Of a stretch of 64,000 nt of DNA, positions 6,241 through 64,000 are shown one piece after another; position 1 is the first letter of the stretch; every line of letters starts with the position of its first letter. Source of the DNA: Ilex aquifolium. Taxonomy: Eukaryota; Streptophyta; Magnoliopsida; Aquifoliales; Aquifoliaceae. Under the pieces are notes generated by a model that saw only the letters and a list, made by a program, of their open reading frames with translations, had not been told where the DNA came from and did not search any database. Position numbers and translations under genes: made by a program. Location of the stretch: assembly GCA_951799425.1 (NCBI GenBank), contig OX637397.1, forward strand, positions 16,700,064 to 16,764,063, given 5' to 3'.

Positions 6241-7091
6241 AGTTAGGGTTGAGCATATATATTATGTACATTATTAAAAATGTGATTTTAATATCATAGA
6301 TGATGATTTATTGGTGGGCTCTTTGATTATGTACATCAAGAAGAAAATTATTACAAAATTTTGCACAGAAATAGATAATTTTTGGGACATAATATGAAAT
6401 CAAGCATTATTTGAATAAGTGATTGAGTTGAATGTACTACGACATGAATATTGTGTCTTTTTTTTTTGTTCCATGTCTTAGTAAGACTAAATAATATTAG
6501 ATATATTTTCTTCTAATATTTTAGTTTTGATTATTAACATATTTCTTATGTTTGTGTTTAAAAATTAGTGAAATTTGTTTATTAATATTTGGGCTTACCT
6601 TAAAGTGAAATGTTGGCTGCGCCATTAAGGGACAAGTGAATATTATTATATCTTACATAGGTAGAAAGTCAAACAGTGTCTAGTGGTTGGGACACGTTAC
6701 CATACCCTTGAGAAATTAGAGGGTCAATGTGAGACTTTTTGAACTTGAGAGAGCAAAGAGGAGTCAAATTAAGTACCATTAGCCCGTAAATTAGCTCTTG
6801 AAGTGATTATAGCAAATCGTATCTATCTGGGGTAGCTTCTTTCCTAGCCTTTTCAAATCAGTAGATAAGTTTGACCCGAATTCACATGGCATTTACACTT
6901 GTCGTTTTGTTATTGCGGCTTAATTTGCCCGAATGCAAATTTGAGAAACAGAGAGATACAAATGACATACGGAGTGATTTGCTAAGGGCAGTAACTTTTG
7001 AGTTTAAGAGTTGTTAGACATGTATAGTCTTTACTCGACAGTGCAAATAAACTATTTTCGTGACTCAAATTTAAAATTACTATTCCTTGAT
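6241..7091. other. Intergenic, no gene seen
   Basis: AT-rich sequence without coding signal, RNA gene or convincing transposon end on either strand. Confidence 0.5.
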
Positions 7092-7500
7092 TGTTGAAAT
7101 TGCTGTGATGGGCCCACGATTTGAGTACCGAGATTTACAATAAAGTAACAAAAAACAAATAAGGCACACACAAATAGATATAAAAAATTTATGTAGTTCT
7201 GCAATTGCCTACATCCATGGTGACAAAAATCGAATATTTGTACTATGGAGTAAAATAACAATACAAGAAGGATTGTATTTTGCCTTGCAATTATTCATAC
7301 CAACAAGAGAAAACACACTCTGATCTCATTGCTCTCTCTTGCATATCACTCAATTTTTAGATGCCTTACAACTCTCTACACTCAAAAAACTACTTTTGAT
7401 TTTCATGCCTACAACCAATGCTTGAGCACCCCTTTATATAGAGGACTTTGGAGAGGAAACGTCCAAACCACTGGATCTATGCGTGATTGAGCCACCAGAC
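7092..7500 (-). mobile_element. Copia-type LTR fragment or solo LTR
   Basis: Read on the minus strand this looks like a retrotransposon LTR. A TATA box (tatataaag) lies near 7432-7441, then about 200 bp of leader, then gtaggcaattgcagaac near 7196-7213, a phrase common in plant copia LTRs shortly before their 3' end. The plus-strand left edge begins TGTTGAAATTGC at 7092, consistent with an LTR terminus. The other terminus was not found and no internal region is attached. Fossil; right boundary approximate. Confidence 0.45.
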
Positions 7501-9194: not shown

Positions 9195-11861
9195 TGTGAC
9201 ACCCCAAAATTCGGGGGTCCGTTGATTACCCATCAACCCGCGGAATACCCGTTTATACCGAGTAACTCGATATCGTGCCATTATGCCCCTCTTATCGGGG
9301 TCCGTAATTGAACAAAATTATCAGGCAGAGTCACCTTTGTACAGGAAGCTCTACTCAAAACACAACCTGTGCATATATCTTCACATGACCCATCCAAGAC
9401 CCAATATAACACATTGACCACACCGGGTCCATTTATAAGTAAACATTGGCCACACCGGGTCCAATTATCCATACTTATATCAAAATATGCAAGGTTATTT
9501 TAACAATAGTCCATAAAAGTTTTATTACAATTATTTGCAAAAGATTACATGCCCAAAACATAATTTTCACAAGTGTTTTACATTAACACAAAATAAAGCC
9601 ACATTCGGCTTTCTTCAAACATGAGGGTCCAAATTGGAGCCATCCGCCGATGTATTTCCCCCACCTGAAATGTTTTCCAGTATAGGGTGAGCCAACGCCC
9701 AGTAGAGTATATCCTACAGAGGCTACTCCCCACCTAAGTGCACATGCAATGTTTACATATAACATTTATTCTCATCAAAATTCCAAGTAAGAATATGCAA
9801 CTCTATATTGGAATTTATCATGCCATGCTATGAAATGAGATGTGGCTCACTCATGCAACTTTAACCCGAGTCCTCACCGACTCCCACAACACAATGCAAT
9901 GCCAATGTGTAATGAATCCGTCAATTGACGAAAAATCCACCCAATGATCGTTTGAAATAAAAGTTTTTTTATTATAAAACCAAATCATTGATGGGTGTTA
10001 CTCATTGAATGAGTACTTTATAAATCAAAATCCTGTGTCTTGTTGAGCAACGGATTTTGGTATCTCAACCACCGGTTCCGTAAACACCAGCATTTTTCTG
10101 GAATTTCATCACCGGGAAGTGCCTGAACCATGTGACCGGGTTTTGCACCTGAGGGAAAGTCTAGCCCTACTTGCTATACCCGACACAAGTTTTTCCATGC
10201 ATGCAACCGTGCGACTCAGTCGGATATTCAATCCAACTTTCCCGAGCCCATCCTTCAACCACCAAGAATGATGTTTGAATGAACCATGCCCAAACACACA
10301 CACACACCCACACTCATGCCTAAGCCCATGAAATGGATGCCTCCGTGCAAATGCAATGTAATGTGTCATTGCATGTCAATGTCATGTCCCATATGTAAGG
10401 AATGCTATATGAATCAATTTAACCACACATTTCAGTATGTATCATGGACAATTATATCGTATGCATATAATCTCCAAAAATTCATCATAATGTCAATATG
10501 AACAATTTCAACATATCGCATGATCAATTATATAAAAAGCATATAATTTTCATGTTCATCATAATGATAACATATCATTAAACATATATTTACATTATAA
10601 CCAACAACAAATCCCAAGCATGTTAGCAAATAATCTATGCCAATAACACACTTAATTCACAAGGCACAATATAAACACATAGTATGCCCACATAATACCA
10701 ATATCCAAGAAATTACACATGTAACTTTCACATATCAATTTCAAGCTAGAATTTGGTTTTAGACCAATTTCATACCCATTTCCACAATTCAACAACCATA
10801 GGCAAGTTTTCATTCAATACAATATCCAAGCATGCTATACATAGTCCATGCAAAACATACTTAATTTTCGCCTAGGCCTTTAATCAAACACATTCAAGGC
10901 ACCAAATCATGTAATCACATAAAATGCTCAAATTTGTCACATAACTCAAAAAAAATCAGAATACATGATTTCCACCTACCCAATTATCAAGACATCCAAG
11001 AAATCACAAACTAGCAATTTCTATTTACCGATTCACACTAGAATTGAACCTACCCATTTCCTTTAAACGAACTATAATAGGCAAGTGATAAATATATATA
11101 TATATATATAACACATACATCTAACCATTCCTATGGACATTTAGGTTAGAAATCAACCAAAGTAGGAGAAACCCTACCTCAATAGGAGTGTAGAAAATTC
11201 CTATAACACCAAAATAACTCAAGAACTCTTGATTTCCCAAATCTTCACTTTTGAATCTTCGGTGAAATCTCTTGTTTTTGGTACGTACACGTAACCCTCG
11301 TCGAGGAGATGAACTTTGCCTCTTGAATCGACGGATTTCGACAGACGAAACTCCCAGAATCAGAGCGAAAAGGTTGAAGAATTTTTTTTTTCTCCTCTTT
11401 GCTTGGCCGGCTGCTTACAGCTAAGGAGAGGATATTTTTTTCTCCAAAAAGCTGATTTTTGAGGATTTTTATAGGCAAAAATGTGCGGTCCACATCGCAC
11501 CGCATATTTTCGACTTCCGGGTCCATTTTTCGTCCCGAAACGATTCATTATACCTCGGATTAAGTTCAAATTAATTTTATTTGAAATTTAACTTAATTTT
11601 AAAGAAATTTTATAAAAAATGTTTTTGGGGACCTTTAAAATGTCATTCGCCACGCAGTCACCTCGAACGACGTGCAAAAATTCTACTATCTCGGAATTCG
11701 ACGAAATTTGACAGGGTGACTAGATTTCGCGATATGAATCCAACGGCGAACTTCGTTTCCTCATCTGAGATCTAGAGTATGAGTATTTCAAATAAGCATT
11801 AGGATGGCAAATGACCATTTCGTCCTTATTCACAAAAATTCAAATTTACCCTGGTTTCACA
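9195..11861 (-). mobile_element. Solo LTR, 2.7 kb, probable Ty3/gypsy, inserted in copia
   Basis: A 2.67-kb stretch bounded by TGTGACACCCC on the left and GGTTTCACA on the right (plus strand), the reverse complement of an LTR that starts TGTGAAACC and ends GGGGTGTCACA. It aligns along most of its length, in opposite orientation, with 21254-24180. Four-base flanks (gggg on both sides) fit a decayed 5-bp target duplication. No primer-binding site, polypurine tract or coding domain is attached, so this is a solo LTR left by LTR-LTR recombination. The long LTR length and ends suggest a Tekay/Del-like gypsy family; that assignment is inference. Confidence 0.8.
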
Positions 11862-38492: not shown

Positions 38493-39030
38493 CAATTTAG
38501 ATGAGACTGGATAATCAATTCGAATTCAACTAATACTAACGGTAATAATTGATCTACAACTCTAATCTACCACAATTATATTATGTTTGGATTAATATCT
38601 TCTTTGGATGAAAGATTAATACATGGTATTTTTTTAAAAAGACAAAAGCATCTTTACATCAATGCATGACTCTCTCGTCTGCTATGATACTCTAGTCATT
38701 TTTTATATTAATGTCGATTATATCTCATTTAATATCACTTATACATGTGGTGTTTGATGACATTGTAGCATCGGACCGTGCTAAAAAAGTCATTACGAGA
38801 CCAAATCTTGTAATCTGATCCAAATCTGATATTAATTTACAAGCTACTTGATTATTAGTCTAATCACATCCCATCTTTCTATGGCCGGCTATTAGGCAAG
38901 TGAGGCACTCGCTTAGTACCCGCTCACCTAAGTCCCCATTTCCGTACGCTTCATATGATCACTCGCTTAAGTCCCTACGCACCTATGGGCCCCATTTTCC
39001 TACGTTATATAAACAAAGACAAATTTAAAA
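38493..39030 (+). repeat. Repeat X, copy 1
   Basis: An unclassified repeat of about 530 bp found three times in the window in the same orientation (also 49784-50523 and 62543-63067). Markers in order: attcgaattcaactaatact, acatggtatt, gcatgactct, gtgtttgatgacattgtag, gaggcactcgctta. Each copy is followed at once by sequence of the Mutator-like family, so X may be part of a larger composite element. Confidence 0.8.
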
Positions 39031-39732
39031 GGGAGAATTACACTCAAACTCTTTAAAGTTTGTAACTTAATCACTCAGATTTCCTGATATTTAAAATATT
39101 ACACAAAAATTTCCTAAAATTTGTATACGCGTAACACTTAGACCCCTATCGTCAATGTCCATTAATATTTTCGTTAGTCAATTACACTCAAATCCCCTGA
39201 AGTTTGTAAATGTGTAATACTTAGGCCCTCAAGTTTAAAATATTATACTTAGACCAAAAATACTCCAATAAAAAATAGAATATTAAATATTTTAAATTTT
39301 ACAACTAAAATTTATGTTCTATTAAGATGTTTATTGAAATAAAATCAAAAATAAAAAACTAATTTTTTCTTAAAAAATCATAAATAGTATACAATTGTAT
39401 TATCTATTTGAATTTAATTTGGTCGTTTAAATGATCAAATTAAACTAGCAAATTACTCTAATTAAACTAATAAAATTGATCTAATTTGTTGAAATAATAG
39501 TGTGATTTCATTAGAACCACAAGATTAACACAAATTTTCGATTTTTTATGGGAATCATAATTAATTCAATAATTGTAGTAAATTAGGTTAAAAAATTAGA
39601 TTAATAAGTTAGGTCCCACCATCTTTGCTCATCATTTTTACTAGTCTTTTGTCCATCTCTTGGATACTTTTCTTTCTCTCTTACTTACATATCTTATTTT
39701 TCCAGTTTCCCAATTTTTCTCTCACTTAAATA
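39031..39732 (+). mobile_element. Mutator-like element, left part
   Basis: Begins ggagaattacactcaaactc and carries the staggered phrases tttagacccct and ccgttag-like of the family seen complete at 47644-48502. The long-LTR element copy B begins at 39733, so only the left portion lies here; its continuation may be among the sequence at 47218 onward. Confidence 0.55.
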
Positions 39733-45444: not shown

Positions 45445-47643
45445 TCTCACCAATTATCTGAATGCCCGATTTTCAAAGGAAACTTTGCCAAAATTTTCTA
45501 AAAAAATGACTTATTTAAATTAAAGAGATACTTTTCTAGATGTTTTTACAACAAACCGGCATTTGTTTTTGGAATAAACAAAGTATTTTTTTTAATCACG
45601 CTTTTGTGAAATTTGGGGCGTGACAAATTGGTATCAGAACTTAGGGATTAGGTCTTACATAAGAGCTATAGGAAAATGGGTGCACCAATATTGGAGATAG
45701 TTAGGAGACGTGTGAGATGACAAATAATTTATTTTTGTGTTATGAGTTTTGGATATCATAGAGAGTATTAGTGTATTTTGACTGACAATGTATGAAAGTA
45801 AAAGGCTTCAAGGTATGACGATTTGTGATGTTATAACTTTTTTTGGTTATGTGAATTTTCATTATTTTGTCTGGCCCTTAATTGCTTTAATTTGTGAAGT
45901 CAATGATGTGTGGTAATTTAGTTTTGTTGCTTGGAGATAAGGTCAACTATGACATCATTTATATAATTTTGGTTAGGTATAGTTATTGAAATTGACAGAG
46001 CGGTTAAGTATTGTAGAAAGTTTGAAAATTTTGGTTTTATGGTGAAAACTTTGAGTTGGATATGTCTTCCATTAGGGTGACTAAGAGACTATAAAATAGT
46101 ACAATGTTCAAATACAATCAATTGGAGGGGCATTATACAATGAATAAGTACTTGTATCGATTTTGGAATAAGAGTCCAAATTGTGATTTTGCTTCTGAGT
46201 GGATTGGAGGTTGTTTTATGACCATTTATTTGAGGTTATCAATAGTGGTCTGGAATTAGTATGGATAGTTGGCTAGTGTTGCTTTGGGTAAAAATTAAAT
46301 GTTAAGTGATGATTTAATTTTTGTACAATTGGGTTATAAGAATTATTCAGAAAGAGTATGATTGGAAGATCGTGGTGCAATAATTAATGAATTATATTAG
46401 ATGGCTTTGCTTGAAGATTGATTGAGAATGACATGGTAAGCTTTTGAAATGAAAGAAATATGGAGCAAAGAAATTAGTAATGACATGAAAAAGTAGGAGG
46501 GATTAGACTACGTGTGAGCGTTATAGGACAATAACTCTCTAAAGTACATGGAATGTGTTATCTTTGGGGACGGAGCGTGAACTAGTTTGATTCTTATGTG
46601 ATTGTATTTTGTGGTGCTTATAGTTCATTATACTTAGACCATCTAAAGGTAGTGATAATCGGGAATCCCTTGGGTTGAGTGTGGGGTTTATAGTGAAGTT
46701 GTACTCATAGACTTTAAATGAAAAATGAGATCAAGGGTATGGACTAAAATTTTGAAGTCTCGTGCCATGGAAACCTACAAAATTTAATAAATTTTTTGGA
46801 CTGTGGAGCATAGATGTTCAAAAATTTGAGATCATTTATATTGAGTAACTAATAAAACAATGATGATGTTCAATATTCGGCATAAACTCTTATCGTGGTG
46901 TGAGATCTTTTAATGTCTTTAAAAGTTATATATTGTAGAAACATGAAAGTTTATCTCTTGATCTTTTCAATCCATCATTAGGTTTGATCTTGACAGGTCG
47001 GAGTAGAGAATTGTTGGTATTGAAGATCATAATTTTTTTTTTAAAAATCTTTGCAATTGGTTATGATGTTAAAAAGATTTAATATAGTAGATCAATATAG
47101 AAAATTACACATGGTGGTTTTGATATTAATAGAGTAATGGTTAATTAAGTTTTGATCAAAGTATGGGATTATTTTATTAGCCAGTTAATGGTTGTCGTCT
47201 CGAAGATCATGAGAAATTATAACCTTTAGATTAATACAAATTTTTTATGTTTGATAGTACTTACAATTAATTAAATAATTACAATAAATTAGGTCAAAAA
47301 ATTAGATTAATAAATTATTTCGCAACAACTTTGCTCATCATTTTTACAAGTCTTTTTTCCATCTCTTCGATACTCTTCTCTGTCTCTTACTTACATATCT
47401 CATTCATTCTGTTTCCTGTTTCCTGTTTCCTGTTTCCCAATTTTTCTCTCTCTTAAGTATAACCAGAATTTTATATCTAATTTTACAATAAATTCAAAAT
47501 GTGAATCGTCCTATATTTTTTAAATAAAAAATCACGAGACTCTATTATATCTAATTCAATCCGAGTTCCAATAACTACAGCCTATTCACATAATTTGATT
47601 TTCTTCAACTTTATATTTATGTTAATTTTGATCATAATATAAT

Positions 47644-48502
47644 GGGAAAAATATACCTAAGCTCCCTGAAGTTTATCATTTAATCACTTAGACCCCTAAT
47701 ATTTAAAATATTACACACTTAGATATTTACCGTCAATGTTTGTTAGTATATCCGTTAATAAATTATATGCAGATCCTCTAAAATTTATAGATGTGTGACA
47801 CTTAGACATCTTAAGTTTAAAATATTACACTTAGACCTCTTATTAGTTATGGAACTAATAGAATCTATTAAACAACAAATTACTCCAAATAAAGATAGAA
47901 AATATGGTGTTCATTACAGTTTGACATTTTGTTTGATTTTTTTAGTTTTATTCCAATAGAGAGTATAATTATATACAAATGAGTGTCGAATTGAATTATT
48001 TGATGTATTTATACTAATTACTATTTTTTCTTTAAAAAATTAGAATTTTATTTGATTTTTATGTCAATAGATGATATAATGGAACATACTACTGTGTTAT
48101 TCAGGCTTATTTCATATATTCGTACTTGATGATAAAAAAATTGGCATCAACAATACTAATTATGATTTTTTTTAAGAAAAAATTTGAATTTGAATTTTTG
48201 ATTTTATTTTAATACATGCCGTAATAGAATATAAATTTTGGTTATAAAATTTAAAATATTTGATATTTTATTTTTAATTGGAATATTTTTGGTCTAAGTG
48301 TAATATTTTAAATTTAAGGAGTTTAAGTATTATATGATTCAAATTTTAGGGGTCTGAATTTAATTTACTAACGGATATTAATGGCAGGAGTCTAGGTGTT
48401 ACGCGCATGTAAACTTCAGAGGGTTTGTGTGTAATATTTTAAATATTAAAGAGTCTAGGTGATTAAATGACAAATCTCAAAGAGCCTAGGTGTAATTTTC
48501 CC
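47644..48502. mobile_element. Mutator-like (MULE) non-autonomous element, complete
   Basis: Begins gggaaaaatatacctaag, ends cctaggtgtaattttccc, with inverted terminal repeats of roughly 200 bp, and is flanked by a perfect 9-bp target duplication TAATATAAT (47635-47643 and 48503-48511). These are Mutator hallmarks. The 860-bp body encodes nothing. A duplicated copy is at 50973-51883. Confidence 0.88.
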
Positions 48503-48903
48503 TAATATAATTGTTTGCATAAAAGATTCGTTCTGCAAGCACTTTTCATTTCATCTTAAACTTCTTCCTCGGCGGTATTTTGTCTTTTGGCTAAACCGAT
48601 CCCTATGTGCCTTCCCACCTTTTTCTAGTTTGTGATAATTAATGAGTAGAAACAAAAAAAACATAATTAAACCATAGTGAAAACCAACATGTCCATTTCA
48701 GGAGCGACCTGCTTTCCATTTTTCTTTATTCCAAGTGGAACAATACAAAGGGAAAACCATTTTTTATTCCATATAAAGTTTTCATTTTAAATAATCGGGG
48801 TTTCTACTTCATTTAGTTGCATGGCCCAGAACAATAGGACAGAGTATAACATGAATCATACAATGAATTTCAGGATTTATAGGCAGAAAACAAATGAACT
48901 TAC

Positions 48904-48966
48904 ACGAAACTTCCCAGCTCTAGGAGCTGTACGATCCCTAATATCGGCCCAGGCATCTGCATTGCA
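48904..48966 (-). CDS. Exon-like cassette in D1 (21 codons)
   Basis: On the minus strand an AG acceptor (aaaccag) precedes 63 open bases that include NADAWADIRDRTAPRAGKF, followed by a strong donor GTAAGT. Length is a multiple of three and phase 0, so it fits between proposed RINGv exon 1 (49710-49772) and exon 2 (38308). It corresponds in position to 52228-52293 in D2, but the coding interiors differ while the flanks match. No family recognised; the exon status is inference from splice sites and openness. Confidence 0.4.
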
Positions 48967-49127
48967 CTGGTTTGAACGTAAAGAATTATTCTCCAGAATT
49001 TGATTATTGCAATCGGAACTTCAAGCAACAAATATTGGAAATAAATGAATACTTTGGGGACGTAACTTGTATTTTACCCTAAAATAAATGCCTCTTGCTT
49101 AGCAGGTTTTATAAGATTGCTTGAGTC

Positions 49128-49390
49128 ACGGGGTGTTAATCAAGTCGAGTTTTGTGAGCTTGAGTCCGAACTTGTCGAACTCATTTTTTTAAACGAGTCT
49201 AAAAAATTGTTCAAAGATGGCTTGTCTAAAAATGAGCCGAGCCCGAGCCTGAGCCTAAGCCTGCTTAACTCGACTATTTTACATATAAACAAGTCAAGTT
49301 TTGAGAGCTCGAGCAAAGCCTTTTAGGCTCGTTTTTCTAAACGAACCTAAAAAATTCTTCAAACTCATCTTGTTTAGAACACGAGCCATT
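49128..49390. mobile_element. hAT-type non-autonomous repeat
   Basis: Starts cggggtgttaatcaagtcgag and is rich in gagctcg/cgagctt phrases, typical of plant hAT-derived repeats. Its first 150 bp are repeated at 52455-52611 in D2, where the similarity stops at the edge of the coding Helitron region. Confidence 0.5.
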
Positions 49391-49709
49391 AGATTTTTCA
49401 CATTGTGTCCTCAAGGTACTAAAAGTGTTGTAATGTGGCTCTTCCGTTAGTTTATGTTACTTATTTCGTCAATGTCAATGAGGTTTGTTTTGACGGAATT
49501 ACCAACGGAAGTGTTATATTGTAATAATTTTAATACATTGAATGTGTAATATAAAAAATCTCATTTTTGAGAGTAAAAGTTGAAAAAATTTAAATCTGTA
49601 AGGGTATACATACAGATATATAAAGAAAATTTAAACCAGTGAAGAGAAAAGAAATTGAAAATTGAGTCTCAAAAGCGGGGAGAGAGAGAGAGAGAGAGCA
49701 AAAACCAAC

Positions 49710-49772
49710 CTTTTCGGAAGGTCCGCTGACATCATCAATGGTTTTCATAGCAGGCAATGGATTACTTTCCAT
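49710..49772 (-). CDS. Candidate first exon of RINGv gene
   Basis: The minus-strand ATG at 49772 opens ESNPLPAMKTIDDVSGPSEK and closes at a donor (AAAAG|GTTGGT, 49710/49709) in phase 0, matching the phase-0 start of exon 2 at 38308. The result would be a protein of about 140 residues, or 161 with the 48904-48966 cassette. The intervening intron of 11.4 kb would contain copy B, its Helitron and a Mutator-like element. Only about 12 bp separate the ATG from repeat X copy 3, so the original promoter has been displaced or replaced. Linkage to the RINGv exons is inference. Confidence 0.45.
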
Positions 49773-49783
49773 TTTCCTTTCGG

Positions 49784-50523
49784 ATAATCGATTCGAATTC
49801 AACTAATACTAACGGTAATAATTGATCTACAACTCTAATCTACCGCAATTATATTATGTTTGGATCAATATCTTCTTTAGATGAAAGATTAATACATGGT
49901 ATTACTTTAAAAAGACAAAAGCATCTTTATATCAATGCATGACTCTCGTCTACTATAGTAGGCATTTTGGACGCTGCTATTGACATAGCCTTTCTGGCTA
50001 TATTTTTTGTTACTCCACCCATTTCATAAAGTATTCGACCTGGTTTAACAACAGCTACTCAATATTCAGGGGATCCTTTCCCGGAACCCATATGTGCTTC
50101 TGTGAGTCTTACTGTAATTGGTTTGTCTGAAAATATTCGTACCTATATTTTTCCAGCACGACGTGCATTCCGTGTCATTGCTCGTCGACCTGCTTCGTAC
50201 TCTAGTCATTTTTTATATTAATGTCAATCATATCTCATTCAATATCACTTATACATGTGGTGTTTGATGACATTGTAGTATAGGACCGTGCTAAAAAAGT
50301 CATGAAAACCATATCTTGTAATTTAATCCAAATCTGATATTAATTTACAAGCTACTCGATTATTAGTCCAATCTCATCTCATCTTACAATGGGCTCCTAG
50401 GCAAGTGAGGCACTCGCTTATTGCCCCTAAGGGCCCATTTCCCTACACTTCTCACCTTGGTCCCTACGCACCTATGGGCCCCATTTTCCTACGTCATATT
50501 AATTAACAAAGACAAATTTAAAA
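49784..50523 (+). repeat. Repeat X, copy 3, with plastid DNA insert
   Basis: Second copy in map order of the unclassified repeat (see 38493-39030), interrupted by about 240 bp of chloroplast rpl16 at 49958-50197. The two other copies show the uninterrupted sequence (ctatgatactctagtc at about 38680 and ctatggtactctagtc at about 62730). Confidence 0.82.
49958..50197 (-). pseudogene. rpl16: Nuclear copy of chloroplast rpl16 (NUPT)
   Basis: On the minus strand it reads as the C-terminal half of chloroplast ribosomal protein L16: [56 protein letters not shown] and AISAASKMP-like (here [10 protein letters not shown]). Two Trp codons of the plastid gene (after GKI and after SPEY) have become stops by G-to-A change, as expected for decaying, methylated nuclear DNA. 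Ends fall cleanly inside repeat X, with no clear target duplication, as for filler DNA taken up during break repair. Confidence 0.9.
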
Positions 50524-50972
50524 GGAGAATTATACTTAAATTTTCTGAAATTTGTCACTTAATCATTCATATTCCTTAACATTTGAAATATTAACACAAT
50601 TTTTTATGTTTGATATGGCTCACAATTAATTCAATAATTGTAATGAATTAGGTCAAAAAATTAGATTAATAAATTATGTCCCAACAACTTTGCTCATCAT
50701 TTTTACAAGTCTTTTTTCCATCTCTTCCATACTCTTCTCTATCTCTTACTTACATATCTCATTCATTCTGTTTCATGTTTCCAATTTTCCTCTCTCTTAA
50801 GTATAACCAGAGTTTTAAATCTAATTTTACAATAAATTCAAAATGTGAATGGTCCTATATTTTTTAAATAAAAAATCACGAGACTCTAGTATATCTAATT
50901 CAATCCGAGTTCCAATAACTACGGTCTATGCACATAATTTGATTTTCTATGTTAATTTGGAAGTAATATGAT

Positions 50973-51883
50973 TGGAAAAATATACCTAAACTCCCTAAAG
51001 TTTATCACTTAATCACTTAGAGCCTAATATTTAAAATATTACACCCAAATCTCCTGAAATTTGTTCGCACGTAACACTTAAACCTCTACTGTCAATGTCT
51101 GTTAGTATATCCGTTAATAAATTACATGCAGATCCTCTAAAATTTATAGACGTGTAACACTTAGACCTTTAAGTTTAAAATATTACACTTAGACTCCTTA
51201 TTAGTTCTAGAACTAATAAAATCTATTAAACAACAAAATTACTCCAATTAAAGATAGAAAATATTGTGTCAATTACAGATTGACCATTTGTTTGATTGTT
51301 TTAGTTTTATTCCAATAGACAGCATAATTATATACAAATGAGTGTCGAATTGAATTTTTGATGTATTTATACTAATTACTATTTTTTCTTAAAAAAATTA
51401 GAATTTTGTTTGATATTTATGTCAATAGATGATATAATGGAACATACAACTTTGTTATTTTGGGTTATTTCATATATTCGTAGTTGATGATAGAAAAATT
51501 GGCATCAACACCACTAATTATGATTTTTTTAAAAAAAATTTGAATTTGAATTTTTTATTTCATTTCAATACATGAAGTAATAGAACTCTTCTCAAAAAAA
51601 GTAATAGAACATAAATTTTGGTTATAAAATTTAAAATATTTGATATTTTATCTTTAATTGAAATATTTTTTTGTCTAAGTGTAATATTTTAAACTTGAGG
51701 AGTTTAAGTGTTATAAGCTTCAAATTTTAGGGGTTTGAATTTAATTTACTAACGGATATTAACGGCAGGGGTCTATATATTACGCGTGTGTAAACTTCAG
51801 AGGGTTTGTGTGTAATATTTTAAATATTAAAGAGTCTAGGTGATTAAATGACAAATCTCAAGGAGCCTAGGTGTAATTTTCCC
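50973..51883. mobile_element. Mutator-like element, duplicate copy in D2
   Basis: The D2 counterpart of 47644-48502, slightly longer (a small aatagaactcttctc insertion near 51585). The 9-bp flank on the right is intact (TAATATAAT) and on the left reads taatatgat, so it was copied with its target duplication as part of the segment. Confidence 0.8.
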
Positions 51884-52227
51884 TAATATAATTGTTTGCA
51901 TAAAAGATTCGTTCTGCAAGCACTTTTCATTTCATCTTAAACTTCTTCCTCGGCGGTATTTTGTCTTTTGGCTAAACCGATCCCTATGTGCCTTCCCATC
52001 TTTTTCTAGTTTGTGATAATTAATGAGTAGAAACAAAAAACATAATTAAACCATAGTGAAAACCAACATATCCATTTCAGCAGCGAGCTGCTTTCCATTT
52101 TTCTTTATTCCAAGTGCAACAATACAAAGTGAAAACCATTTTTTATTCTCCCAAAACAATAGGACAGAGTATAACATGAATCATGCAATGAATTTCAGGG
52201 TTTAGAGGCAGAAATCAATGAACTTAC

Positions 52228-52293
52228 AAGACGCCACCCTATTCTCAAAGCCGAAGGTGGATAGGCACGGGCAGATGCATTAAACAGCAATCC
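52228..52293 (-). other. Variant exon-like cassette in D2 (22 codons)
   Basis: On the minus strand: acceptor tctctag, 66 open bases including NASARAYPPSALRIGW, and the donor GTAAGT shared with the D1 cassette. Both cassettes begin alike (aatgca.atgcc/aatgcatctgcc) and then diverge, while the intronic flanks on both sides are nearly identical. No other RINGv exon accompanies this copy. Confidence 0.4.
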
Positions 52294-52800
52294 CTAGAGA
52301 CATTTGAAAGTAAAGAATTATTCTCCAGAATTTGATTATTGCAATCGGAGCTTCAAGCAACAAATATTGGAATTAAATGAACACTTCGAGGACGTAACTT
52401 GTAATTTACCCTAAAATAAATGCCTCTTGCTTAGCAGGTTTTATAAGATTGCTTGAGTCACGGGGTGTTAATCGAGCCGAGCTTTGTGAGCTTGAACTCG
52501 AACTTATCGAGCTCATTTTTCTAAACGAGCCTAAAAAATTGTTCAAAGTCAGCTTGTCTAAACAATGAACCGAGCCCGAGCCTGAACCCGAGTAGCTCGA
52601 CTATTTTACAAGTTAGTTAAATTGTTTATAATTAATTGCTTTGTTTTATTAACTAACTTTGTAGGCACCGTTATGGTTTTTTTGAGCTCACCATATTAGG
52701 TTATGCTAGAATTTGTTTTGTTTTCTTTCCTGCTAATGTCATTGGTATTGTCAAAACTATTATTCTATCGTATCTAAGTCTCAAATCATTATTTTTTATA

Positions 52801-55159: not shown

Positions 55160-57050
55160 TTGTCCAATCCAAGATTTGGAACATGTTGTCTACAAGAAAA
55201 AATTAGGTTGCCAGAACTCATTGCACCCCTACCTCCTATTCATGCATTGTACGATGGCCATGGTGGTCAATCAAAATCATTTCGCCGACATATTGGGGAG
55301 TACAATGCAGTCAATGCTTTCACGAGCTTGGGTGCTAAGCTTGACGACAAATTACTCAACTCAATAGGGCCAACATCATTCACTATTAATGGGAAATTAC
55401 GTCACCATACTGGGTCGTTGTTACCCCCGGAAGGTCGTGCACCCATCTACTGTTAGTTGTATATATATCACCCAGTCACTGCATTAAATATTCGGTGTGC
55501 ATGGAATAATAACATGCGTCAAGATGTCCTCCACATTATGCAGAATTGTTTGTTGTTAGTGAATTATTTTGTTTCAAAGTGCAAATGTGCACACGAAATA
55601 TTAACTGAATCAGAATTTTCAGATCATGATTTACGTGCTCACCTTCATTACACCTCATTAACTGATAGGCGTCGGTACAACCTTCCAACCACGGATGAAA
55701 TAACTGTGATTTTGCCTGGTGATGGCAGTGAGAGTAGTTGTATGCGGGATATTGTTCTGCACCTAAGAGGAGATAATAAAGCGCTGAGCCAGAGCAATGA
55801 GTGTCATCCAGCATATTTACCATTACACTATGCACTTCTATTCCCTACTGGTGAGCTTGGTTGGGAACCTGGTCTACGACAATAGAACTCCAAACAAAGT
55901 GATTTTTCAGTAAGAAGGATTACACAGATGCAATTTTACAGTTATCGTATGTTTCTGTGTCCCACTGAGTATTCTAAAATTCTGAGGGGAGGAAAGTTAT
56001 CTCAAGAATTTATAGTAGATGTTTGGGCATCAACGGAGAAAAACAAGTTGTCTTACATTAGACTTAATCAAGATAAGCTGCGTCGGGAGCTTTACGCGAA
56101 TTTGTGTGACGGCAGTGTTGATGAGTTGGGCCCCGATCAGATCGGGCAACGCTTTGTTCTGCCATCGTCCTTTACTGGGAGTACACGTAACATGAGCTAG
56201 ATTTTTCATGACTCAATGGCCATTATAAGGTACCACCAACACCCTGACATCTTTCTCACCGTGACGGCCAACCCAAAATGGCCCGAAATAACAGCTGCCT
56301 TACTAGAATACCAAACCTCTTTGGATCGTCTAGACATAGTTGTTTGTGTATTTGAATTAAAACGACATGCCTTGATGCATCAGGCAAAAGTGAGCAAATT
56401 TTTGGTCAAAAAGTTGCTCATGTATTCACCATTGAGTTCCAAAAACCAAGGTTACCTTACATGCATGTTTTATTCTTCCTTTATGGTCCAGACAAGATTC
56501 AGATAACTGCACAAGTGGATTGGTTAGTTAGTGCTGAATTCCCAGATCCATCAACTAATCCAACTCTCTACAAAACAATCAAGAGTTGTATGGTTCATGG
56601 TTTGTGTGGTTCCCGAAACCCACATTCAACTTGCATGGTGAACGGTGCATGTCGGTTCCACTATCCAAAAGCCTTTGCAAATTCGACTACTATGGATGAA
56701 CATGGGTACCCTGTTTACCGTCGTCACCATAATGGTCAGTCTTATACCACCAGAGGGTATATATTTGATAATCGGGACGTTGTACCTTACAATCCACACC
56801 TGTCAAGAAAGTTCAACTTTCATATAAACGTGGAGGTCTGTGCAGGAATGAGGTGTGTCAAATATATCCACAAGTACATTTACAAAGGTCATGACCACAC
56901 AACTATGGTTTTAGAGGGATCAAATGAAAACAATGAGATAAAGCAATAGCTTGATTCAAGGTATATTGGACTGACAGAGGCTGCATGGCGGCTCTTCGGT
57001 TATCCTCTCCATGAAGAAATTCCTTCGGTTGTACTGCTAGATCTACATCT
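55160..57050 (+). pseudogene. Helitron-like N domain and Rep (HUH nuclease) region
   Basis: The Helitron_like_N block (55457-56200) contains RRITQMQFYSYRMF and QDKLRRELYANLCDG, followed by FLTVTANPKWPEI, FPDPSTNPTLYKTIKSCMVH, CRFHYPKAF and VKYIHKYIYKGHD, the last including the paired Tyr used for strand cleavage. The HUH metal motif is damaged: relatives have PH.H, here PYMH (about 56452-56463), so one His is lost. In one frame, stops fall at 55454 (CQLY expected, TAG for CAG), 55883 (TAG where Trp is usual) and 56198; a frameshift lies near 56400-56450, and a further TAG at 56947. Rep is therefore dead in this copy. Confidence 0.88.
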
Positions 57051-57655
57051 ACCTGGGATGCATCAAGTTATTTACGATCCTGCTAAAACACTTGAAACAA
57101 TTAGACATGGGTCTAGGAGTCAAAAAAACAACTCTGATTAGATTCTTTGAATGTTGTTCTTCAAATGATGCTACACGTGCCTACATATACTAGGAATTCC
57201 CCCAATATTTTATTTGGAACAAAGGTCGAAAGATTTGGACTCCGAGACAACACGGGTTTGCAATTGGCAGATTATACTTTGCTAAGCCCAATTCTGGGGA
57301 ACGATTTTATCTTTGGTTGCTATTAACAGTTGTTAGAGGACCGCGGTCTTTTGATGGTCTACGCACGATCAATGGCGTGTTTCATGATAGTTTCAAATCA
57401 GCGTGTGTAGCTATGGGGCTCTTGGAAGATGATACAGAGTGGGTACAATGCCTACATGAGGATTCAACTATGAATACAGGATACCAGTTACGGAGACTAT
57501 TCTGCATCATTCTGATAGAATGCTCCCCAATACAGCCATACACTCTGTGGAATCAATCCTCCATCCATATATGTGATGATCTTCATCACAAGCTAAGAAC
57601 AACTTGTGGCATATGCGATCCAACGTAACCTCAAATCGAAGATTACGGTTTATAT

Positions 57656-59300
57656 TTGATTGATCAGTTGCTACATGAATTTGACAAAATTTTGGATGAC
57701 TTCCCACCTATGCCACACCCCGTTGAAAATTGGAGTTGTGTTTTAGATAATAGATTGTTGATCGATCATATGCAACTAAGAAATGAAGCAAACCAACTGA
57801 ATGCCCTTTTGAATATTAATGTTTTAAATGATGCTCAATGCACGACTTACGATGCTATCATTATCTCAGTTGCTGAGAACCAGGGCAAAATATTTTTCCT
57901 CAGTGGAGGTGCAGGAACAAGCAAAACCTTTTTGTACAACACCATCACCACTAAAATGCGCAGCGAGGGCCATATCGTCGTTACAGTTGCTTCATCAGGA
58001 ATTGCTTCATTTTTGTTGTTATGTGGTCGAACAACTCATTCTACATTCTACATTCCATTCGATATCATAGAAAGCTCAGTATGTGGTTTCAGCAAACATT
58101 CACTGCATGGGGAATTATTCAGGGACGCTTGCTTGATAATATGGGACGAGGTTCCCATGCAACATCGACATGGTGTTGAGGTAGTTGACCGCACACTCCG
58201 CGATGTTCGTGATGATAACCGACCATTCGACGGTATCACAATCGTGCTTGGCGGGGATTTCCGTCAAATACTACCAGTGATACCTAGGGTGGGCAAGAAC
58301 AAATTGTTGGTGCATCCTTAAGATGTTCTGCAATGTGGGGTGGGGGGGGGGGGGGGTGTCTGCGTACTGACTTTGGGCATAAACATGCGTTTGAATAGCA
58401 ATGATCATGCAAATTCTTCTCGCGCAACCTTCTTGGAAGAGGTGATTTATATTATAGGTTTATTTATATAAAATCGTCTAATTATTCATTTACGTGTACT
58501 GACTAAATTCACATCAAACTTAGATTGAGATCAGTACGTAAGATACTGTGGAACTTCCTCCAACGATACACAGGTGTCGAATTTTGCATGAACTAATTTT
58601 CAGAGTTTATCCACAACTAGATGTGCTCAGTGCAGTAACGCCATCCTACTTAACTGAGCGCACAATTCTTTACACTCGGAATGATGATGTCTGCTCTATC
58701 AATGATGCTGCTCTACAAATTTACCCTCGCGAGACGTATACCTACTTGGTAGCTGACAAGATGTTGGATGGGGACGACCTCCGTCGTTCTAGCACTAATC
58801 AATATCCAAGTGAGTTTCTGAATTCCCTAAACTCGTCAGGTTTACCACCTTTCAAGTTGGAGCTAAAGGTCGGGTGCCCCATCATTTTGTTGAGGAATAT
58901 AGCCCCGAAAGATGGCCTATGTAACGGGACAAAACTTATGGTTGTCAAGTGCGCATCGTGGGTTATTGAGACTAGAATTCTAACTGGTGACAAACTTGGG
59001 AATCTGTGTTTCATCCCGCGGATATCATTATCACCGTCGTCTAAAAATTTACCATTTCAAATGACTAGACGCCAATTCCCAGTACGCTTAACATATGCTA
59101 TAACAATCAACAAGTCGCAGGGCCAGTCAATCACGTTTGTTGGTGTAGATCTACGCTCACCTGTATTCAGCCACGGTCACCTCTATGTGGCCATGTCTAG
59201 ATGCACATCGGCCGATCGCATCGGTGTCTTTCTCCCTCCTGATGGATCAGCTACCACGACAAATATCGTATATCCGGAGGTGTTGTTGGACATGGTGTAA
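57656..59300 (+). pseudogene. Helitron Pif1-type helicase region
   Basis: Superfamily 1B helicase motifs in order: Walker [18 protein letters not shown] (G.SKT instead of G.GKT), Walker B IIWDEVPM, motif [15 protein letters not shown], then [16 protein letters not shown], and motifs V/VI near the end, [10 protein letters not shown] and [15 protein letters not shown]. The two parts (57656-58321 and 58548-59300) lie in different frames; an intron-like stretch at 58441-58524 (gaagag|gtgatt to aacttag) and a 15-base G run (58342-58356) lie between. The upstream block 57240-57630 (GFAIGRLYFAKPNSGERFYL, LRTINGVFHDSFKSACVAMG) links Rep to helicase. Otherwise well preserved. Confidence 0.9.
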
Positions 59301-59933: not shown

Positions 59934-62541
59934 TGCCTTCAGGGCAAGGGTTATTATAGATGATTATGTTTGTTTTCAGTTATTATAGTGGGTTATTACT
60001 CGATTGATTTAACTTTCTTTAATTAAATGAAATAAAGAATATTCTACATCAAATTAATCGGAGTTGCATGGGTTTTTGTTTGTTCTGTGTTTAGTATGAT
60101 GAAAAAATTACACCTTTATATTATAGATGTTTGGTTTGATGTGAAATTGATGTTTGCTAGGGTATGGATCATTGATTTTGGGAGATTGTTTTGTTTGTTT
60201 TTCAATTATGTATACAGGTTGATGTTTCCATGGTCTCCTATTTTCAAAAGAAACTTTGCCGAAATTTTGCAAAAATAGCGGGTTATTACTAGATTGATAT
60301 AAAAAATAACATATATCAACTTAACCAGATTTGCGTGGGTTTTTGTACACACCTGTTTGGCTTGGCTTGTATGGTGAAATTGATGATTGTTTTGGTTGTT
60401 TCGTATGGATCGCTAATGTTGGGGGATTGTTTCGCTTGTTTTTTAGTTCTGTATACCGGTTCGTATTCTATGGTCTCCTATTTTCAAAGGAAACTAAGTC
60501 TAATTTTTAGCTTTGCTTTGATTGTATTGTGTATTCAAGAGACTGAGTGGATATTATTTTGGTAAACATATGATATGGTGGATATATTATGTGTAGTCTA
60601 AATACGCTTGTGAATTGTTCCTAAAACTGATCGTGCATTCAGGTGTACATAAAACTGCTATGTGTTTGCATTTTATATTGTGCATTTTCAGGGTAGACAC
60701 CAACTCAATTTCAAACTGTGATGTGCAATTGCGGTTGTGTCATGCCCTTGGGCACGGGTTGTTGGGTATTGATTGTTTGATTTTTGGGGATTGTAATATT
60801 TGTTTTTCAGTTATGTATACAGGTTGACATTTCCATGGTCCCCTATTTTTAAAGGAAACTCTGGCGAAATTTTGCAAAAATAGTGGATTATTATTAGATT
60901 GATTTAACTTTCTTTAATTAAATGATATAAATACTAACATCTATCAAATTAACCGGATTTGTGTGGGTTTTTTTTTAATTTTGTGTTTAAAATGGTGAAC
61001 TAAATAAACGTTTATGGAGATATGTTTGGCTTGATGTGAAATTGCTTGTTGTTTTGGTTGTTTCGTTAATTTTTCAGTTCTGTATACAAGTTCATATTTT
61101 CAAAAGAAATAATGTCAAAATTTTGAAAAAATAGTGGGTTATTACTAGATTGATATAAAGAATAACCTATATCAACTTAACCAGATTTGCATGGGTTTTT
61201 GTACACGCCTGTTTAGTATGGTGAACTAATTTCACGATTATAGGGGTATGTTTGGCTTGTATAGTGAAATTGTTGATTGTTTTGGTTGTTGGGTATGGAT
61301 CGCTGATGTTAGGGGATTGTTTCACTTGTTTTTCAGTTCTGTATACTTTTTCGTATTCTATGGCCTCCTATTTTCAAAGGAAACTAAGTCAAATTTTTAG
61401 TTTTGATTTGATTGTATTGTGCATTCAAGAGACTGAGTGGATATTATTTTGGTAAACATATGATATGGTGGATATATTATGTGTAGTCTAAATACGCTTG
61501 TGAATTGTTCCTAAAATTGCATCGGGCACTCAGGTGTACATAAAACTGCTATGTGTTTGCATTGTATATTGTGCATTTTCAGGGTAAACAACAACTCAAT
61601 TTCAAACTGTGATGTGCAATTGCGGTTGTGTCGTGCCCTTGGGCACGGGTTGTTGGGTATGGACCGTTTGATTTTGTGAATTGTAATGTTTATTTTTCAG
61701 TTATATATACAGGTTGACATTTCCATGGTCTCCTATTTTAAAGGACACTTTGCCGAAAATTTGCAAAAATAGCGGGTTATTATTAGATTGATTTAGCTAT
61801 CTTTAATTAAATGATATAAATACTAACATATATCAAATTTACCAGATTTGTGTGGGTTTTTGTTTATTTTGTGTTTAATATGGTGAACTAAATAAACGTT
61901 TATGGATGTATGTTTGGCTTGCTGTGAAATTGCTTGTTGTTTTGGGTTTTTCATTCATTTTTCAGTTTTGTATACAAGTTCATACTTTCAAAAGAAACAA
62001 TGTCGAAATTTTGAAAAAATATCGGGTTATTAGTAGATTGAGTGATTTATATGACCCAAAAACAAAGTGTTATGTTGAGTGAACAATTAACAAGCGTATT
62101 TAGTGGGTTGCAAACTGCCTTCAGTCATTGGTTGTTTGCCTTGGTCTTTTTTTTTACATGTCTGTTGTGTGAACCGAGTTTAGTAAAGTGAACAAAATAC
62201 ACATTGTGTTATTGGTTTATTTTGATTGGAATTGATGGTTGTCAAAGTTTGATGGGTTCGGAATTGTGATTTTCTGGGGAATTTTGATTGTGAATTCTGA
62301 TTATAGTTATGCCTGATTGTGAACTGTAAATTCAAGAGACTTTGAGTTTTGTAGACAAGTTGCGAATTTCTTAGACTCCTATTGTTAGAACTATCTCTGC
62401 CGAAATAGTAATTGCCCACAAATGTCAACTTGTCTATATTGATTTCAATTTCTTTAATTAAAGCAATTTAAAGTAACTTTTTTTTCAGATTAACTGGTTG
62501 GTTTACATCGCACCGTGCCTTCAGGCACATATTACCCCTAG
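59934..62541 (+). repeat. Three tandem units of about 0.89 kb in Helitron 3' end
   Basis: Two landmarks recur in order. gggttattactagattgattt-type text appears at 59992, 60882 and 61770; its sister phrase followed by atataaa appears at 60281, 61137 and near 62026. Each unit closes with a short GC-rich palindrome: an imperfect one near 59933-59946, tgcccttgggca at 60743-60754, cgtgcccttgggcacg at 61632-61647 and the true terminal gtgccttcaggcac at 62515-62528. Spacings are about 813, 893 and 881 bp. Confidence 0.82.
62515..62541 (+). other. Helitron 3' terminal hairpin and CTAG end
   Basis: A 6-bp stem with a 2-base loop (GTGCCT TC AGGCAC), then nine bases, then CTAG|T. The lead-in ttacatcg and the stem are shared with the end at 44903. 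Confidence 0.9.
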
Positions 62542-62542
62542 T

Positions 62543-63067
62543 AATTTAGATGAAACTGGAAAATCGATTCGAATTCAACTAATACTAACGGTATTAATTG
62601 ATCTACAACTCTAATCTATCGAAATTATATTATATTTGGATCAATAAATTCTTTGGATAAAAGATTAATACATGGTATTACTTTAAAAAGATAAAAGCAT
62701 CTTTACATCAATGCATGACTCTCTCATCTACTATGGTACTCTAGTCATTTTTTATATTAATGTCGATTATATCTCATTTAATATCACTTACAGATGTGGT
62801 GTTTGATGACATTGTAGCATCTGACCGTGCTAAAAAAGTCATTAAGACCATGTCTTGTCATTTGATCCAAATCTGATATTAATTTACAAGCTACTCGATT
62901 ATTAGTCCAATCTCATCTCATCTTACTATGGCCAGCTCCTAGGCGAGTGAGGCACTCGCTTATTGCCCGCTCACCTATGGACCTATTTCCCTACCCTTCT
63001 CACCTAGGTCCCTACACACCCATGGACCCCATTTTCTTATGTCATATTAGCAAAGACAAATTTAAAA
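62543..63067 (+). repeat. Repeat X, copy 4 (third complete copy)
   Basis: Starts aatttagatgaaactgg directly after the Helitron end and follows the order of markers given for 38493-39030, without the plastid insert. Confidence 0.8.
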
Positions 63068-64000
63068 GGAGAATTACACTCAAATTTCTTGAAATTTGTC
63101 ATTTAATCACCCAAATTCCTTGACATTTGAAATATCAAACATAGATCCCTTAAAATGTGTATGCGCATAACATTTAGACCCCTACCGTCGATGTCCGTTA
63201 ATATATTCATTAGTAAATTACACCTGGATCCCTTGAAGTTTGTAGATGTGTAATACTTAGACCTATCAAGTTTAAAATGTTATATTTATACCAAAAATAA
63301 TCCAATCAAATATAGAATGTCAAATATTTTAAATTTCACAACCAAAATTCATATTCTATTAAGATATTTATTGAAATAAAATCAAAAATAAAAATCTAAT
63401 TTTTTCTTAAAAAATCATATATAGTGTATAATTATACTATCTATTCGAATTTAATTTGGTCGTTTAAACGACCAAATTAAACTACCAAATTACTCCAATT
63501 AAAGTTAGAAGATATTGAGTCCATTATAGTTTGACCCGTTGTTTGATTTTTTAATTTTATTCCAATAGATAGTATAATTATATACTAATTATGATTTTTT
63601 AAGAAACAATTAAATTTTTATTTTTGATTTTATTTCAATAAATGATACAATATAACATGAATTTTAGTTACAAAATTTAAAAAATTTGATATTATATTTT
63701 TGATTGAAATATTTTTTGTTTAATTATAATATTTTAAACTTGAGGGGTCCAATAGGCCTTTGGTCTAATGATACTCTTTACCTTGTGAAAGCTTTGCCTT
63801 CTTGAGGTTAAGGGTTCAAGTCACCCTCCCCTCCCGCTCACCAAAAAAAGAAAAATAAAAAAAAGTATATACGCTTACAAACTTCAGGGGATCTGAGTAT
63901 AATTTATTAACAAATATACTAACGAACATTGAAGGCAGGGGGTCTAAGTGTTCCGTTCGTACAAACCTTAGGGGATTTATGTATAATATTTCAAATGTCA
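63068..64000. mobile_element. Mutator-like element, cut by window end
   Basis: Left terminal repeat from ggagaattacactcaaattt, and toward the window's end the inverted partner (cttcaggggatctgag, gggggtctaagtgttccg). The right terminus lies beyond base 64000. A SINE interrupts it at 63751-63865. Confidence 0.7.
63751..63865 (+). mobile_element. tRNA-derived SINE
   Basis: Third member of the family: cctttggtctaatgatac, gttaagggttcaagtc, C-rich tail, A-rich end. Target duplication not resolved. Confidence 0.75.

What the first reader, a model, noticed from the sequence alone, without database searches (positions are those of the whole stretch)
48904..52293. Duplicated exon-like cassettes with matching splice flanks but divergent coding interiors
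D1 and D2 are about 2-kb direct duplicates that match closely, yet at one spot on the minus strand each holds a short open cassette (63 and 66 nt, both multiples of three and phase 0) with its own AG acceptor and the same GTAAGT donor. The cassettes start alike and then diverge (NADAWADIRDRTAPRAGKF against NASARAYPPSALRIGW) while the surrounding non-coding sequence stays nearly identical. That is the reverse of normal exon/intron conservation. It could mark alternative exons, diversifying selection, or local replacement by foreign sequence.
Basis: partly seen in the sequence, partly recalled or inferred. Interest (0 to 1): 0.72.

Follow-up and report, generated by a model that had tools for sequence, protein, structure and literature searches.

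The report
Fast-changing middle exon, duplicated plant gene
In a small predicted gene copied several times along one plant chromosome, the middle exon differs greatly between copies while the non-coding DNA around it stays similar, a pattern usually linked to proteins under pressure to change, although nothing yet shows that the gene is used.

Summary
D1 (48904-48966, 63 nt) and D2 (52228-52293, 66 nt) lie as stated on the minus strand, with AG acceptors, the same GTAAGT donor and phase 0. D1 and D2 differ at 24/57 aligned sites inside the cassette, but at 11/206 (intron 2), 9/173 (near intron 1) and 2/178 (exon 3 region) around it. They are not alternative exons of one gene: each is exon 2 of its own copy of a predicted three-exon small gene. 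Eight copies of this exon were found, all within about 0.95 Mb of chromosome C7. Their core lengths are 60, 60, 54, 54, 42, 42, 123 and 72 nt, all multiples of three; 7 of 8 are open. Between copy groups exon 2 is about 4.3 times as diverged as the rest, yet two recently duplicated pairs show 1/54 and 0/42 changes, which argues against a constant mutation hot spot. I favour episodic diversification of the encoded peptide, with introns kept alike by recent descent and some gene conversion. Closest known behaviour: segment switching in snake three-finger toxin exons. Expression is unproven and substitutions in exons 1 and 3 look neutral, so a decaying family remains a serious rival.

The parts
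49710..49772 (-). exon 1 of copy A1 (D1): MESNPLPAMKTIDDVSGPSEK, then GTTGGT donor, phase 0
   Evidence: relatives at 6 other C7 loci; a longer two-repeat form at 17.09, 17.34 and 17.69 Mb
48904..48966 (-). exon 2 (variable cassette) of copy A1: CNADAWADIRDRTAPRAGKFR
   Evidence: CAG acceptor, GTAAGT donor, 63 nt, open
48556..48624 (-). exon 3 of copy A1: KKVGRHIGIGLAKRQNTAEEEV and stop, after a CTAG acceptor, phase 0
   Evidence: lies in the most conserved part of the D1/D2 pair
52228..52293 (-). exon 2 (variable cassette) of copy B1 (D2): GLLFNASARAYPPSALRIGWRL
   Evidence: TAG acceptor, GTAAGT donor, 66 nt, open
51937..52005 (-). exon 3 of copy B1: KKMGRHIGIGLAKRQNTAEEEV and stop; no exon 1 relative was found for this copy
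47230..49288 (.). duplicate unit D1 (approximate ends)
50590..52614 (.). duplicate unit D2 (approximate ends)

Best explanation
The cassettes are exon 2 of separate copies of a small three-exon gene that arose by local duplication on one plant chromosome. After duplication the peptide encoded by exon 2 was changed quickly by in-frame insertions, deletions and clustered substitutions, most likely under episodic selection for new peptide sequences. The introns and exon 3 stay similar because the copies are young and because stretches are sometimes copied between them (gene conversion). Shown: the copies, the in-frame lengths, the concentration of change in exon 2, and the lack of a constant hot spot in two recent pairs. 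Inferred: that the exons are spliced and translated, and that selection drove the change.
For: Eight copies with the exon found, all on C7. Exon 2 core lengths 60, 60, 54, 54, 42, 42, 123, 72, all multiples of three, 7 of 8 open. Five distinct lengths all in one frame has a chance of about 1/81 by my own arithmetic; of the distinct gap lengths in non-coding parts among five copies, 4 of 9 are multiples of three. Donor and acceptor signals are present at exon 2 in all 8 (the donor was also the anchor used to find the exon end). Exon 1 also varies in frame (63 nt in C against 117 nt in F). Exon 2 differs by 30-43% between A, E and the other main groups (A-B, A-C, A-E, B-E, C-E) while the rest differs by 6-10%. 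Within pairs of one segmental duplication: A1/A2 6/60 against 12/743 elsewhere, B1/B2 1/54, C1/C2 0/42; a constant hot spot predicts 10.9 changes in B and C together, 1 was seen, P = 0.0002. Conversion: B1 and C2 are identical over intron 2 and exon 3 (0/291) but differ at 21/308 in intron 1 and 9/87 downstream, although B1's partner by position is B2.
Against: No RNA evidence could be obtained. Exons 1 and 3 show neutral-like substitution (exon 1 A1-C1: 2 synonymous and 10 non-synonymous differences on 13.3 and 49.7 sites; exon 3 almost all non-synonymous). Even in exon 2, A1/A2 differ by 5 non-synonymous and 2 synonymous changes, no more than the neutral ratio. B1/B2 lack exon 1; F has a TGA in exon 2 and has lost the start of exon 3; A1/A2 have a repeat where the upstream region of other copies lies. 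B-C pairs show no excess of substitutions in exon 2 (3/42, p about 0.4-0.7) beyond one 12-nt gap. The A1/A2 cluster in exon 2 (7 differences in 60 sites, 27 of 2000 shuffles) is matched by a cluster in intron 1 of C1/C2 (7 in 60, 20 of 2000). No match in Pfam or the PDB.
Confidence: 0.5

Rival explanations
1. Decaying or non-coding duplicates: the family is a set of pseudogene copies or a non-coding transcript, and the variable patch results from a few chance indels and multi-base changes early in its history.
For: Neutral-like substitution in exons 1 and 3; several copies visibly incomplete or broken; no known protein family.
Against: All exon 2 lengths in frame, 7 of 8 open, splice signals present in all 8; divergence stops at the GT donor; exon 3 region low in divergence in D1/D2, though conversion could also explain that.
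Confidence: 0.28
2. Introns homogenised, exon 2 kept apart: the copies are older than they look, gene conversion has erased differences in introns and exon 3, and selection against conversion keeps exon 2 distinct, as reported for L/M opsin genes.
For: B1-C2 tract of 291 identical sites beside a differing exon 2, in conflict with the positional pairing; sequence near the exon is less diverged (about 5%) than D1/D2 outside the gene (7.9%).
Against: Only one clear tract; a tree from columns without exon 2 (7 copies, F left out) recovers the A, B and C pairs with strong support (96-100 / 93-99) rather than mixed groups; exon 2 differs by in-frame indels too.
Confidence: 0.14
3. Mutational hot spot: exon 2 mutates faster for physical reasons such as local structure or short repeats.
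For: Copy E seems, by eye, to hold a diverged internal repeat, and short similar runs occur in several copies.
Against: B1/B2 and C1/C2 together show 1 change where 10.9 are expected (the A pair alone, 6 seen against 4.2 expected, does fit a hot spot); RNA folds of both regions are no more stable than shuffles (z 0.44 and 1.28); change keeps the frame.
Confidence: 0.05
4. Alternative (mutually exclusive) exons of one gene, or replacement by foreign sequence.
For: Matching donor and phase.
Against: Each cassette has its own exon 3, and D1 its own exon 1 between them; no donor sequence found.
Confidence: 0.03

Closest known systems
ASSET (accelerated segment switch in exons), snake three-finger toxin genes (PMC2474615, PMC2711939; passages seen)
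   Same: Three-exon duplicated genes; introns more than 85% alike when present; short exon segments differ sharply between copies; origin of the new segments unknown.
   Different: Those toxins are expressed and built on a conserved cysteine scaffold. Here the predicted peptides hold at most one cysteine, no signal peptide is apparent (my reading, not tested with a tool), expression is unproven, and only exon 2 is affected.
HYP hyper-variable effectors of cyst nematodes (PMC11228951; abstract and passages seen)
   Same: A hypervariable central stretch, in one exon and in frame, between conserved regions.
   Different: HYP variation is allelic and comes from shuffled repeat motifs; here it lies between gene copies, and I saw no ordered set of motifs.
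L/M opsin genes of gibbons (PMC3213168; abstract and passages seen)
   Same: Exons more diverged than introns between neighbouring duplicates; conversion tracts mostly in introns.
   Different: Opsin exons are under purifying selection with synonymous divergence raised too; here there are indels and a large excess in one exon.
Plant cyclic-peptide (orbitide) precursors of flax (PMC9308333; passages seen)
   Same: A precursor with hypervariable stretches between more constant ends.
   Different: The passages describe conserved flanking signatures, a leader with a signal sequence, and repeats; I recognised none of these here, by eye.

Membership tests
ASSET-type evolving gene family | duplicated gene family with introns highly alike (over 85% when present) | tested here: met
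   Between main groups A, B, C and E intron 2 differs by 0-6% and the 3' part of intron 1 by 7-13% of aligned sites; F's intron 2 could not be aligned well because of an insertion
ASSET-type evolving gene family | exon segments radically different (12.5-50% identity) between copies | tested here: inconclusive
   Whole exon 2, aligned nucleotides 57-70% identical for A or E against the other groups, plus 6-81 nt of gaps; not scored segment by segment
ASSET-type evolving gene family | expressed protein on a conserved cysteine scaffold | tested here: not met
   Predicted peptides hold at most one cysteine (read); expression was not testable
Mutually exclusive alternative exons | both cassettes lie in one transcription unit between shared exons | tested here: not met
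   Each has its own exon 3; exon 1 of D1 lies between them
HYP-like hypervariable domain | variation by shuffling of a set of repeat motifs | tested here: inconclusive
   Alignments show indels and substitutions and no ordered motif set by eye; no formal motif search was made
HYP-like hypervariable domain | variation is allelic or somatic | not testable with these tools
   One genome only
Known protein family | match to Pfam or a solved structure | tested here: not met
   0 families at E up to 5 or 10 for the predicted peptides of A1 and E and the 17.34-Mb relative; 0 PDB sequences at E up to 10 for E
Known RNA family | match to Rfam at the gathering score | tested here: not met
   0 matches in the window

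The most novel reading that the evidence does not exclude
A plant lineage has a young, otherwise unrecognised gene family that diversifies one exon by in-frame segment replacement while the rest of each copy is homogenised: a plant counterpart of venom-gene segment switching, possibly in a protein that recognises or evades a partner.
Probability: 0.12. Interest if true: 0.8.

Novelty: new variant of a known kind. Interest (0 to 1): 0.42.

Why it matters
If the exons are translated, this is a compact natural case (eight copies, six of them forming three pairs of one segmental duplication) in which one can ask whether segment-wise exon change is driven by selection or by a mutational process, a question the venom papers leave open. 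It also points to an unrecognised small plant protein whose middle part may be under pressure to differ.

Tried and rejected
Donor of the cassette interiors elsewhere in the genome: none found. Structured RNA: no Rfam match in the window, folds ordinary. Known protein: none; I used the wrong frame for exon 3 in proteins 1 and 4 (GKAHRDR...), and one search repeated the search with KKVGRHIGIG..., the frame that follows from a phase-0 acceptor. Inversion of the cassette between D1 and D2 was considered from a short palindrome (GCAGATGC/GCATCTGC) and dropped by eye only. A relative at 17.34 Mb (L044) has exon 1 and exon 3-like pieces but no exon 2 that I could see; it was left out of the exon 2 counts. 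Copy F was left out of the tree. Paper searches: searches returned nothing; some searches gave the papers cited. I make no claim that a plant case is absent from print beyond these ten searches of one open-access library.

Full report
WHAT IS THERE. The window is part of an 800-Mb genome in 103 contigs; that it is a flowering plant is my inference from content. D1 and D2 are direct duplicates, roughly 47230-49288 and 50590-52614. The divergence profile of D1 against D2 is: outside the gene 7.9%, exon 3 region 1.1%, intron 2 5.3%, cassette 42%, near intron 1 5.2%, far intron 1 14.3%.

THE GENE. Around D1 a three-exon model on the minus strand joins in phase 0 throughout: exon 1 49710-49772, exon 2 48904-48966, exon 3 48556-48624, a predicted peptide of 64 residues. 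D2 has exon 2 and exon 3 (51937-52005), but no exon 1 relative was found. Searches of the whole genome with the D1 region, each cassette, exon 1 and one predicted protein found relatives only on C7 between 16.75 and 17.69 Mb; the other hits all lie in the last 123 bases of the query, a repeat-like part of intron 1. One search scored 40 of 898 candidates, so copy numbers are lower bounds. Eight loci hold exon 2: A1 (D1), A2, B1 (D2), B2, C1, C2, E (17.69 Mb) and F (17.095 Mb). A ninth, at 17.34 Mb, lacks it as far as I could see. A1/A2, B1/B2 and C1/C2 are partners in one segmental duplication, 40.0-74.0 kb against 185.6-227.7 kb of the joined stretch that starts at window base 1; the pieces kept (at least 600 bp and 93%) are 95-98% identical. 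The gene matches no Pfam family or PDB sequence, and the window no Rfam family.

THE VARIABLE EXON. From the shared AATGCA to the donor the eight copies measure 60, 60, 54, 54, 42, 42, 123 and 72 nt. All are multiples of three and 7 of 8 are open; F has a TGA. Donor and acceptor signals are present in all eight, the donor having served as anchor. Distinct gap lengths in the non-coding parts of five copies are multiples of three in 4 of 9 cases. The interiors are not unrelated: E's long form can be aligned with A (shared ...TAGGGAT... and ...GCTCCTAGA...), and B, C and F share AYPP- or ADPP-like starts. So the cassettes look like diverged homologues, not foreign inserts. Exon 2 was significantly more diverged than the rest in 18 of 28 pairs. 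The ten pairs without it are B1-B2, C1-C2, four B-C pairs, and four pairs of B or C with F. F's reference is inflated by an insertion; with intron 1 as reference 4 of the 5 F pairs tested were significant and C1-F gave p = 0.052.

HOT SPOT OR SELECTION. Within the recent pairs exon 2 changed 6/60 (A, against 12/743 elsewhere, p = 0.0012), 1/54 (B) and 0/42 (C). If the 4.35-fold excess seen over six between-group pairs were a constant mutation rate, B and C together should show 10.9 changes; 1 was seen (P = 0.0002). For all three pairs 15.1 were expected and 7 seen by the count used (P = 0.017); the A pair alone (6 seen, 4.2 expected) fits a hot spot. Bursts of change fit better than a steady hot spot. 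The A1/A2 differences over 63 nt are 5 non-synonymous and 2 synonymous, close to the neutral ratio, and several fall in one short cluster, so they may be few events. A similar cluster lies in intron 1 of C1/C2, so clustering alone is not special to exon 2.

CONVERSION. B1 and C2 do not differ at any of 291 sites of intron 2 and exon 3 but differ at 21/308 in intron 1, 3/42 (plus a 12-nt gap) in exon 2 and 9/87 downstream, although B1 pairs with B2 by position. This looks like a conversion tract ending near exon 2. A tree without exon 2 still recovers the A, B and C pairs with strong support (F left out), so conversion has not mixed the groups wholesale.

DOUBTS. Coding status rests on frame, open reading and splice signals. 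Substitutions in exons 1 and 3 are neutral-like. B lacks exon 1, F is broken, and A has a repeat where other copies have their upstream region. No transcript data were available. The duplicated pairs could be two haplotypes assembled side by side; A1/A2 and so on would then be alleles, and the within-pair comparison would still hold.

COMPARISON. The nearest described behaviour is segment switching in viperid three-finger toxin exons, where introns are more than 85% alike and switched exon segments 12.5-50% (PMC2474615 and PMC2711939, passages). Those authors leave the mechanism open. HYP effectors (PMC11228951, abstract and passages) differ in being allelic and motif-based. Gibbon opsin genes (PMC3213168, abstract and passages) show how conversion in introns plus selection in exons can give exons more diverged than introns. 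Sea urchin 185/333 genes show the opposite, with the intron more diverse than the exon (PMC1988830, passages). I file the plant family under none of these; it behaves most like the first.

On rereading I corrected the distance between the duplicated segments (142-154 kb, not 147 kb throughout), marked copy numbers as lower bounds, added the A pair's fit to a hot spot, and lowered the HYP motif row to inconclusive because no formal motif search was made.

Noticed in passing
window 49782-50598, 38494-39466, 62543-63503: Three copies of a repeat of about 0.97 kb. The copy beside exon 1 of D1 carries about 240 extra bases that look like a plastid rpl16 piece (recalled resemblance, not tested; the frame sent has stops), and it lies where other copies have their upstream region.
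   Followed up: partly
window about 56356-59300: Remains of a Helitron-type element: PIF1-like helicase (57629-58321, E 5e-56), Pif1 2B domain (58542-59300, E 5e-18) and a Helitron N-terminal match below the family's cut-off (56356-56949, E 0.0037).
   Followed up: partly
window 40001-64000 and on to about C7 16.774 Mb, against C7 16.8857-16.9278 Mb: Large segmental duplication, kept pieces 95-98% identical, copies 142-154 kb apart; a true duplication or two haplotypes placed side by side.
   Followed up: partly
L027 2497-2533, L041 about 9576-9612, L043 about 7390-7433 (minus strand): Intron 1 of copies C1, C2 and F holds a stretch resembling the start of exon 3, as if the exon had once been duplicated.
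   Followed up: no
L043 about 6315-6500: Intron 2 of copy F carries an inserted stretch with inverted ends (TAATACTACACTGACCAAATTTT / AAAATTTGGTCAGTGTAGTATTA), like a small non-autonomous transposon.
   Followed up: no
L043 7575-7691, L045 7702-7818 (minus strand): Exon 1 of copies F and E is an internal two-fold repeat (MESNxSTAxEISDDSxRK / MESNPLPAMKxSDDVS...), acidic and serine-rich; copies C have a single fused unit.
   Followed up: partly
window 60362-62041: Two neighbouring units about 0.89 kb apart, 92% alike over about 790 bp, with further partial copies from 59742.
   Followed up: no
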